From Armatimonadota bacterium (GTDB taxonomy: Bacteria; Bacteroidota; Ignavibacteria; OLB7): 55,310 nt of DNA. A model generated the notes under the pieces. The model ran no database searches, was not told the origin of the DNA, and saw only the letters and a program-made list of their open reading frames with translations. A program made the translations under genes and the position numbers. This document shows positions 52,755-55,310 of the stretch, piece by piece. The stretch's first letter is position 1, and every line of letters starts with the position of its first letter. The stretch lies in contig JADZEY010000091.1 of assembly GCA_020850315.1 (NCBI GenBank), positions 1 through 55,310 of the forward strand, written 5' to 3'.

Positions 52755-52932
52755 GAAGCAGGAAATGATTGAGTCTGCAAACAATCTACCCCCCAGCGAT
52801 TACATTTTTTGCGGCTGACGATGACACTACCGCATCACCCACCGCTGTTTGCCACCATCTTCCCCCAAAAAACTTCTTCTGCTGCCGTGCTACTGCTTTG
52901 TGGTTCCCCCGTTCGGCAGTAGTTTCCTTCCC

Positions 52933-54729
52933 GTGCAATCCAATAGCGACCAAATCACTCACCGCTCAACCACGTATTCCAGCGCAGTTGGCAACGACGC
53001 GCCCGTTGTGTTCGATGGCATTCCTGCATCGCCAGGCATTGCCATGGGGGTTGTTCATCTGCTCTCATCGGCGGTCAACTCTGCAGTAGAGGAGCAGAGG
53101 ATTCAGGAATTTGAGATTGAGATTGAGATTGCACGATTCCAGGCGGCGGTGCAGGCTGCCGACGACACGTTATCCCAGATTGAAGCAATGGCGCGCGAGC
53201 AGGTTCACGACCGCGCCGAAATCTTCGAAGGGCTGCGGATGATGCTGCATGACCCCGCGCTGCATGATTCGATTTGCGGTTGCATTCGCTTGCGGCGGAT
53301 GCCGGCACTGGGGGCTATTCGGGGGGAGATGGCCGCGCTTGCTGCACAATTTTCCGCAAGCCCGAACCTCACCATCCGCTCCCGTGCTGAGGATATTCAC
53401 TCCTTGCAAGAACATCTGATAGCTGCGTTGCGGAATGCGCCAACGGCACATCCGCTGCACAACGGCGCGGTGCTTGCTGTGGAAACCCTATCCCCCGGTG
53501 ATACCGTGCTTCATGCCCGTGGCGGGGTTAGCGGGTTTGTGTTGGAAGCGGGGGGGATTAACTCCCATGCGGCAATCCTTGCGCGGGCGTTCGAGCTTCC
53601 GATGGTGGTGGGGGTCCGCGATCTGTTTACCCGGCTTCAGCCTGGATGCCGAGTGATTGTGGATGGATACGTGGGCCGAGTGATTATCAACCCGGATCAA
53701 ACCGCACTTCAGCACTATCAACTCCGGAAGGAATCTCTAGAATCACAACGGCAACGCTACCGCCAGATACGGGACCTTCCCGCCGAAACCCGCGATGCCG
53801 AACGGGTAATCCTGACCGCAAACCTAGACCTGATGGAAGAGGTGGAAGGGGCATTAGAAAATGGTGCGGAAGAAATTGGACTGATGCGAACCGAATATCT
53901 GGCAATGCACCGCGTGGCCGAGATCAGCGTGGAAGAGCAAACCCACGCCTACCGCAAAATTGCCGAGCGTGCCTACCCGATGACCGTCAACTTCCGCCTG
54001 TTCGACATCGGCAGCGATAAACTTCTGGGCAACGCCTGGAGCAGCGATAGCTCACCATTGGGAATGCGTGGAATGCGATTGCTGATGGCACATCAGGAGA
54101 TACTGCACCGCCAGCTGGAATCGCTGCTGCGCGCAAGTGAGATGAAGAACATCAGAGTGATGCTGCCGATGGTGGGAAGCATCGAAGATATCCGGGGGGT
54201 GAAGCGGATGATTGCTGAAATCAAGCAGCAACTGCTTGCCAAACGGGTTCCGTTTGATGACTACTTGCCGGTGGGGGCAATGATTGAAACACCCGCCGCC
54301 GCCTTGATTGCCGAAACACTTGCCAGCGAATGCGCTTTTCTGAGCATCGGAACCAACGACCTTGCCCAGTACACCGTTGCGGTTGACCGCGCCAACGAAT
54401 CGGTGGCCGCTTGGTACGACGAGTTCCACCCGGCGGTGCTGCAGTTGATCCGCACCAGCATCCTTGCCGCGCATCGGGTTGGGGTGCCAATCACACTCTG
54501 CGGCGAGATGGCTGGGTTGCCCCTTGCCACCGGATTGTTGGTTGGGCTTGGGTTGCGCCGTTTTTCCGTTGCGCCGCCACAGCTTGGGCCGCTGAAAATG
54601 CGGATCCGCTCCCTTTCCGCTGCCGAATCACGCGCGTGGGCCCGCGCCGCGCTTCGTATGCCAGGCCCCGGCGAAGTTCGCGCCTACCTTCGCTCCTGCA
54701 TGGACGGGGGGGATTCGGAAGTGAATTAG
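52933..54729 (+). CDS. ptsI: Phosphoenolpyruvate-protein phosphotransferase (PTS enzyme I)
   Basis: Enzyme I takes phosphate from PEP and passes it to HPr. GGINSHAAILARAFELP contains the phosphorylated His, at residue 212 from GTG 52933. The PEP-binding barrel has LMRTEYL near 325, GMRGMRLLM near 405, PMVGSIEDI near 440, and SIGTNDLAQYTVAVDRAN near 500 and CGEMAG near 545. From GTG 53008 the protein would have 573 residues and the His at 187, like the E. coli enzyme (575, His189), so that start is equally good; TTG 52849 is possible. No HPr, EIIA or sugar permease gene is nearby. Confidence 0.93.
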   Translation: MQSNSDQITHRSTTYSSAVGNDAPVVFDGIPASPGIAMGVVHLLSSAVNSAVEEQRIQEFEIEIEIARFQAAVQAADDTLSQIEAMAREQVHDRAEIFEGLRMMLHDPALHDSICGCIRLRRMPALGAIRGEMAALAAQFSASPNLTIRSRAEDIHSLQEHLIAALRNAPTAHPLHNGAVLAVETLSPGDTVLHARGGVSGFVLEAGGINSHAAILARAFELPMVVGVRDLFTRLQPGCRVIVDGYVGRVIINPDQTALQHYQLRKESLESQRQRYRQIRDLPAETRDAERVILTANLDLMEEVEGALENGAEEIGLMRTEYLAMHRVAEISVEEQTHAYRKIAERAYPMTVNFRLFDIGSDKLLGNAWSSDSSPLGMRGMRLLMAHQEILHRQLESLLRASEMKNIRVMLPMVGSIEDIRGVKRMIAEIKQQLLAKRVPFDDYLPVGAMIETPAAALIAETLASECAFLSIGTNDLAQYTVAVDRANESVAAWYDEFHPAVLQLIRTSILAAHRVGVPITLCGEMAGLPLATGLLVGLGLRRFSVAPPQLGPLKMRIRSLSAAESRAWARAALRMPGPGEVRAYLRSCMDGGDSEVN

Positions 54730-54781
54730 GGGTGAGGGGTGAGAGGAGTCCTACGGATAATCTGAACAAACAAGCAGACTA

Positions 54782-54820
54782 AACGCACTGCGGTTTATCT
54801 GAGATAAATGCAATGCGTTA
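54782..54820. repeat. Inverted repeat after ptsI
   Basis: AACGCACTGCGGTTTATCT (54782-54800) and AGATAAATGCAATGCGTT (54802-54819) are inverted copies with three differences, with one base between them. There is no T-run. It may be a terminator, an operator, or a boundary of the AT-rich insert that follows. Confidence 0.55.
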
Positions 54821-54839
54821 ATGCAGGTGGTGGCGGTAA

Positions 54840-54908
54840 TTATCCGACGACAGTGCTTCATTGAAAGAAGAGCAAAAACAGATGACAATTCTAACTGCAT
54901 TTGAGTGA
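54840..54908 (+). pseudogene. Remnant of an upstream reading frame, overlapping the endonuclease start
   Basis: A 22-codon frame (LSDDSASLKEEQKQMTILTA then FE) follows a TAA at 54837 and ends in TGA at 54906-54908, overlapping the next ATG as TGATG. Coupling of this kind is seen between restriction and modification genes. The piece is too short to name and has no start codon before the ATG at 54882. It could be the tail of a lost gene, or chance. Confidence 0.3.
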
Positions 54909-55310
54909 TGAATTTGAAAGATAAAAGCCAATACAAATCTGACTTTAAAAAAGAGCTTGACAAGTTTGCTGACAAGCTTGAAAAATACGTTTCTACCGAT
55001 AATGGCGATTGGGCTGTAAAGGGGTTTATTGACGTTTATAAGAATATCTACACGATTTCCTCCGACACTAAAATCGTTTCAAAAATCCTTGAAATACACA
55101 TCTTCCCACAGATATTGCAATTTGCGGAAAGTATTGGCTATAACATCATTCTTGCTGAGAAGCAAAATTGGTATCCTGATCTGACTTTTGTTAAAAAAGG
55201 CAATGAAGAAGTAAAATTTGCTCTCGACATTAAAACCACTTTCAGAAGAAATGATAAAACGGCAGGCTTTACGCTCGGTAGCCACGGTGGCTATTTCAAA
55301 GAGAGAGATA
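54908..55310 (+). CDS. EcoRV-family type II restriction endonuclease (5' part)
   Basis: The frame runs off the window's right edge after 134 codons. It begins MNLKDKSQYKSDFKKELDKF. Residues about 52-61 (ISSDTKIVSK) and 84-110 read like EcoRV: SDTKVLS, then HYPDFTL and IAIDIKTT there, against WYPDLTF and FALDIKTTF here. The PD...DIK catalytic residues are present (Asp near 94, Asp and Lys near 108-110). FTLGSHGGYF follows, like FTLGGYTSF in EcoRV. EcoRV cuts GATATC; this enzyme's site cannot be told by eye. The gene is AT-rich (55021-55080 has 22 G+C of 60; inside ptsI 54601-54660 has 43 of 60). A partner methyltransferase should lie nearby, probably downstream. Confidence 0.85.
   Translation, partial: MNLKDKSQYKSDFKKELDKFADKLEKYVSTDNGDWAVKGFIDVYKNIYTISSDTKIVSKILEIHIFPQILQFAESIGYNIILAEKQNWYPDLTFVKKGNEEVKFALDIKTTFRRNDKTAGFTLGSHGGYFKERD

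What the first reader, a model, noticed from the sequence alone, without database searches (positions are those of the whole stretch)
54908..55310. EcoRV-like restriction endonuclease at the right edge
The start of this truncated gene aligns by eye with EcoRV over the region that holds the catalytic PD...D-x-K residues: WYPDLTF, then FALDIKTTF, then FTLGSHGGYF. The SDTK element upstream is also kept. EcoRV relatives are rare, and one in a Bacteroidota/Chlorobiota-type genome would widen the family. The window contains no methyltransferase, so the modification partner must be outside it or be missing.
Basis: partly seen in the sequence, partly recalled or inferred. Interest (0 to 1): 0.72.

Follow-up and report, generated by a model that had tools for sequence, protein, structure and literature searches.

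The report
EcoRV-type restriction-modification system, split across contigs
The window ends inside a gene for a DNA-cutting enzyme closely related to the laboratory enzyme EcoRV; the rest of the gene and its protective methylase lie on the next contig, so this is an ordinary bacterial anti-phage system, but its relatives turn out to be common and in some bacteria travel as mobile gene cassettes.

Summary
The frame from 54908 is the first 134 residues of an EcoRV-family endonuclease (Pfam PF09233, E 6.5e-50). The window is a whole contig (C91) that ends inside the gene. Contig C97 begins with the missing half; with a 3-bp overlap the two read in frame as a 305-residue protein that keeps the EcoRV catalytic residues and GSGNT recognition loop. 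The 'missing' methylase follows at once: a Dam-class N6-adenine methyltransferase, 55% identical to M.EcoRV. The pair sits in a ~2.9-kb, 37% G+C insertion in a 56% G+C genome; a congeneric genome has the two flanking genes side by side without it. Most likely a working GATATC restriction-modification system.

'Rare' is wrong: one scan found 157 relatives, mostly in Bacteroidota, up to 96% identical across classes. New member of a known kind.

The surprise lies in the relatives. In several, the pair is one integron-type gene cassette bounded by attC-like sites; in one closed Bacteroidota chromosome it belongs to a ~507-kb array of at least 335 sites, in a phylum where complete integrons were hardly known in the literature I could read. 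The window's own copy shares the cassette leader but has no attC and stands alone.

The parts
54908..55310 (+). 5' part (134 codons) of the EcoRV-family endonuclease gene; continues on contig C97:3-518 (L085) to a 305-residue protein. Catalytic residues E62, D91, D107, K109 (EcoRV E45, D74, D90, K92).
54828..54907 (+). Leader shared with the same gene pair in L005, L007, L008 and L009 (72-78% identity against about 50% outside it). Its 5' edge is the point where cassettes begin in those loci (GTTGGCGG; here GGTGGCGG).
54896..54903 (+). TGCATTTG, a one-mismatch form of the Bacteroidota -7 promoter element TANNTTTG, 4 nt before the ATG; exact in 51 of 79 homologous loci within 30 nt of the start (about 0.03 expected per locus).
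   Evidence: the consensus itself is from general knowledge
54735..55310 (.). Left part of a ~2.9-kb low-G+C insertion (39% here, 37% on C97, host 56%); it continues to about C97:2330. Absent between the same two flanking genes in congeneric genome G004.
52849..54729 (+). Left flanking host gene: PEP-utilising enzyme (PTS enzyme I-like).

Best explanation
A Type IIP restriction-modification system of the EcoRV family, acquired horizontally. The endonuclease (305 aa, cut by the contig end) and a Dam-class N6-adenine methyltransferase (307 aa) form a two-gene operon, endonuclease first, overlapping by 4 bp (ATGA), read from a promoter just before the start codon. The methyltransferase modifies an adenine of GATATC in host DNA; the endonuclease, as a dimer with a PD...DxK site, cuts unmodified GATATC in incoming DNA to blunt ends. 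Shown: gene identity, continuity of the two contigs, intact catalytic and recognition residues, partner gene, insertion at an occupied/empty site. Inferred: GATATC specificity, activity, dimer, blunt cut, promoter use, defence role.
For: PF09233 on both halves; junction C91/C97 in frame with a 3-bp overlap and matching the uninterrupted gene of L007; the order C91-C97 is independently confirmed because in G004 the left flank gene (C27:14959-16782) and the right flank gene of C97 (C27:16986-18065) are neighbours. E45/D74/D90/K92, Q69, N70 and the R-loop GSGNT of EcoRV are conserved. Structure model of the 94% identical L006 protein: all 39 PDB matches with E<1e-3 are EcoRV. Methyltransferase PF02086, TIGR00571, 55% identical to M.EcoRV. 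The pair is kept in 76 of 80 relatives; the other four break at or near a contig end.
Against: The gene is joined from two contigs by a 3-bp overlap, so a frameshift in unassembled bases cannot be excluded. GATATC is not avoided in the window (14 sites, 5.8 expected), which is compatible with protection by methylation but gives no support. The structure model has low confidence (mean pLDDT 61). No methylation data.
Confidence: 0.92

Rival explanations
1. A decayed remnant: the endonuclease is a pseudogene and only the methyltransferase still works as an orphan regulator.
For: The contig break lies inside the endonuclease gene, so its integrity is not seen on one contig; the insertion lacks the attC end seen in relatives.
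Against: Both halves are open, catalytic and recognition residues are intact, and the join is in frame with 94% identity to intact relatives.
Confidence: 0.06
2. An EcoRV-fold enzyme that has changed specificity (not GATATC).
For: Only 33% identity to EcoRV, a 17-residue N-terminal extension and a ~22-residue insert before the recognition domain.
Against: The R-loop GSGNT(A/T)NIGS and Q69/N70 are unchanged; the methyltransferase is 55% identical to M.EcoRV; some close relatives pair the same endonuclease type with a methyltransferase 60-64% identical to M.EcoRV.
Confidence: 0.08
3. A three-gene system in which ORF X (C97:1442-2089, weak PD-(D/E)XK match) is a functional third component.
For: X follows the methyltransferase after 3 nt in the same direction; weak PDDEXK_9 match, E 0.018.
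Against: X occurs in none of the 80 homologous loci; homology to relatives stops at C97:1430, just before X.
Confidence: 0.07

Closest known systems
EcoRV / M.EcoRV of E. coli plasmid pLG13 (NC_005019)
   Same: Same endonuclease family, catalytic and recognition residues; N6-adenine methyltransferase of the same kind, 55% identical.
   Different: 33% identical endonuclease; EcoRV has a helix-turn-helix regulator gene and a divergent methyltransferase gene, here no such regulator and a co-directional operon with the endonuclease first; N-terminal extension and internal insert.
EcoRV-family pair of Rhodothermus marinus plasmid pRMAR01 (NC_013502)
   Same: Same gene order, endonuclease then Dam-family methyltransferase overlapping by 4 bp; 51% identical endonuclease, annotated 'EcoRV family'.
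   Different: Lacks the ~22-residue insert; plasmid-borne.
Integron gene cassettes (Vibrio-type sedentary chromosomal integrons)
   Same: In relatives such as L045 the pair lies between attC-like sites whose cassette start is the reverse complement of the cassette's own end.
   Different: Not true of the window's own copy; the recombinase beside the L045 array falls below the integron-integrase cut-off and matches it in two pieces with a gap.

Membership tests
EcoRV family endonuclease (PF09233) | Profile match over the curated cut-off | tested here: met
   170 and 162 bits for the two halves, cut-off 25
EcoRV family endonuclease (PF09233) | Catalytic PD...DxK plus E45 | tested here: met
   E62, D91, D107, K109 aligned with E45, D74, D90, K92
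EcoRV family endonuclease (PF09233) | Recognition R-loop G182-T186 and Q69/N70 | tested here: met
   GSGNT and QN conserved
EcoRV family endonuclease (PF09233) | EcoRV fold | tested here: met
   Model of the 94% identical L006 protein; every PDB match with E<1e-3 is EcoRV; model confidence is low
Type II restriction-modification system | Cognate methyltransferase next to the endonuclease | tested here: met
   C97:515-1438, TIGR00571 and 55% to M.EcoRV
Type II restriction-modification system | Cuts unmethylated GATATC, methylated GATATC protected | not testable with these tools
   needs protein or methylation-aware reads
Integron gene cassette (own copy) | attC site at the 3' end | tested here: not met
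   No credible R1 match at the locus with filters off; none in the whole genome at E<=1
Integron gene cassette (relatives L005, L013, L018, L045) | attC-type site after the gene pair, and cassette start/end complementarity | tested here: met
   L006, L024, L051 and L055 also have a strong site just after the pair
Integron (L045 array) | Canonical IntI integrase | tested here: inconclusive
   Adjacent 371-aa recombinase: TIGR02249 178 bits, cut-off 265; NF040815 'tyrosine recombinase/integron integrase' 211, cut-off 220

The most novel reading that the evidence does not exclude
EcoRV-type systems spread through the Bacteroidota and neighbouring phyla as integron-type gene cassettes, drawn from very large arrays (CP058707.1: about 507 kb, at least 335 attC sites) that are served by an integrase outside the canonical IntI group. 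The window's copy descends from such a cassette that landed outside an array and lost its attC end.
Probability: 0.5. Interest if true: 0.7.

Novelty: new member of a known kind. Interest (0 to 1): 0.33.

Why it matters
For the finding itself: it closes the 'missing methylase' question and shows that EcoRV is not an isolated enterobacterial enzyme but one outlier of a family well represented in the Bacteroidota. The wider point is the vehicle: the same gene pair is an attC-bounded cassette in several Bacteroidota, which offers a simple route for its near-identity across classes and points to very large cassette arrays in a phylum where IntegronFinder 2.0 knew a single complete integron outside Chlorobi and Ignavibacteriae (PMC9024848).

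Tried and rejected
A third component X: not conserved in any relative, so left out of the system. An attC at the own locus (the hairpin at 54781-54819 looked suggestive): no model support, filters off. A first attC scan with strict scoring found almost nothing; it was replaced by a looser scan with reversed-sequence controls and then by a covariance model. TIGR02249 as a marker of integron integrases: nothing over the cut-off in 8 genomes, and it rings weakly in all 14 control genomes. Avoidance of GATATC: not seen. Rfam gave no match to the attC-like sites. A structure job on the joined window protein was not tried because the joined letters are not on one source; the 94% identical L006 protein was used instead.

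Full report
Observation. The frame beginning at 54908 encodes 134 residues and leaves the window open. It matches Pfam Endonuc-EcoRV at E 6.5e-50 over profile positions 1-110, and solved EcoRV chains at about 1e-14. The window is an entire contig, G000:C91:1-55310, so the gene is cut by the assembly and not by biology.

The rest of the gene. A search of the same genome with PF09233 found profile positions 113-244 at the start of contig C97. C91 ends ...GAGAGATA and C97 begins ATAAAGATAAAAAT; with the shared ATA they give one 305-codon frame with the same order of residues as the uninterrupted gene of Flavobacterium cyanobacteriorum (L007; 93% identity). The contig order is confirmed independently: in G004, a genome of the same genus, the left flank gene (PEP-utilising enzyme, 90% identical) and the right flank gene of C97 (88% identical) lie about 200 bp apart with nothing between them. 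The insertion is therefore about 2.9 kb (54735 to about C97:2330), of 37-39% G+C in a 56% G+C genome. G004 carries its own copy of the pair elsewhere, 85% identical in DNA.

The system. The endonuclease overlaps by ATGA with a 307-aa methyltransferase: MethyltransfD12, Dam family TIGR00571, PADLOC Type II methyltransferase, and 55% identical to M.EcoRV over 285 residues. The EcoRV residues E45, D74, D90, K92, Q69, N70 and the recognition loop GSGNT are all present (catalytic triad of EcoRV as in PMC4081073; the roles of the other residues are from general knowledge). AlphaFold on the 94% identical L006 protein gave a low-confidence model (pLDDT 61), yet all 39 PDB matches with E below 0.001 are EcoRV entries. 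Differences from EcoRV are a 17-residue N-terminal extension, an insert of about 22 residues, no regulator gene, and endonuclease-first gene order. Just upstream of the ATG, 51 of 79 relatives have an exact TANNTTTG, the Bacteroidota -7 promoter element, with about 0.03 expected per locus; the window has TGCATTTG.

Distribution. One scan of GTDB species genomes confirmed 157 relatives; the best 80 are 70-96% identical over the window's part, and 76 of the 80 have the methyltransferase next door. They come from Bacteroidota, Chlorobiota, Ignavibacteriota, Fidelibacterota, Desulfobulbaceae and Acidobacteriota, and the tree mixes classes (a quick tree with few strongly supported branches). In one clade (L044, L056, L062, L070, L071, L076, L078, L079) the endonuclease is 71-74% identical to the window's, but the methyltransferase is only 47-51% identical to it and 60-64% identical to M.EcoRV, which suggests that partners have been exchanged.

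The vehicle in relatives. Downstream of the pair several relatives have an imperfect palindrome with AAC...GTT ends. In L045 (CP058707.1) the palindromes repeat along the contig in one orientation, and in 13 of 15 consecutive intervals the 8 bases at the cassette start are the reverse complement of those at its own end (1.4 by permutation): the mark of an integron cassette, whose attC is split between its two ends. The EcoRV pair is one such cassette, of 2,061 bp. A 26-sequence alignment supports an attC-type hairpin: 83% of cells paired, 99 both-side changes against 36 in shuffles and at most 41 when slid. A covariance model finds strong sites just after the pair in L005, L006, L013, L018, L024, L045, L051 and L055 (the model was built in part from the sites of L005, L013, L018 and L045, so L006, L024, L051 and L055 are the independent ones). 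In CP058707.1 it finds 352 sites (E<=0.001) in the 620 kb searched. An independent palindrome scan finds 335 sites on one strand against 46 on the other, between 3,475,745 and 3,982,375, and 280 of 334 consecutive intervals are complementary (13.3 by permutation). A 371-aa tyrosine recombinase lies about 3 kb beyond the array. The genome paper (PMC7966762) does not mention integrons, and IntegronFinder 2.0 (PMC9024848) reports complete integrons in this group only for Chlorobi, Ignavibacteriae and Salinibacter ruber; a 2021 review lists Bacteroidota among phyla with integrons without detail (PMC8618304). CP058707.1 is a long-read metagenome assembly, so the exact size of a repetitive array should be checked.

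The window's own copy. It shares the 80-bp cassette leader with L005, L007, L008 and L009, and the similarity starts at the cassette boundary. It has no attC, and a search of its genome with the array's recombinase returned only matches lacking its N-terminal domain. Descent from a cassette is an inference; the present copy is a stand-alone insertion, with an unrelated ORF X where the attC would be.

Verdict. An ordinary restriction-modification system by itself; the cassette context of its relatives is the part worth following.

Noticed in passing
CP058707.1 (L045; L132-L158), about 3,475,745-3,982,375: A ~507-kb one-orientation array of at least 335 attC-like sites (352 by covariance model) in a closed Bacteroidota chromosome, with cassette start/end complementarity in 280 of 334 intervals. 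Its source paper does not mention integrons.
   Followed up: partly
L158:5783-6898 (-); related ORFs in L108, L109, L110, L111: A family of 352-376-aa tyrosine recombinases with an N-terminal domain of about 85 residues (motif KWS....WYL), below the integron-integrase cut-off, next to the array in CP058707.1; in L108 a cassette-leader motif lies just beyond the recombinase gene. Candidate integrase of these arrays.
   Followed up: partly
L044, L056, L062, L070, L071, L076, L078, L079: EcoRV-type endonucleases like the window's, paired with a methyltransferase much closer to M.EcoRV: partner exchange within one restriction-modification family.
   Followed up: partly
L085 (C97):1442-2089: ORF X, 215 aa, weak PD-(D/E)XK match, found only in this copy; nearest relative on a Sphingobium plasmid (38.6% identity), very few in the phylum.
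   Followed up: partly
window, whole: GATATC is over-represented (14 sites, 5.8 expected by dinucleotide shuffling), not avoided.
   Followed up: no
76 of 80 homologous loci: The endonuclease gene precedes the methyltransferase, and no controller gene was seen in the own locus; how a new host is protected before the endonuclease appears is unexplained.
   Followed up: no
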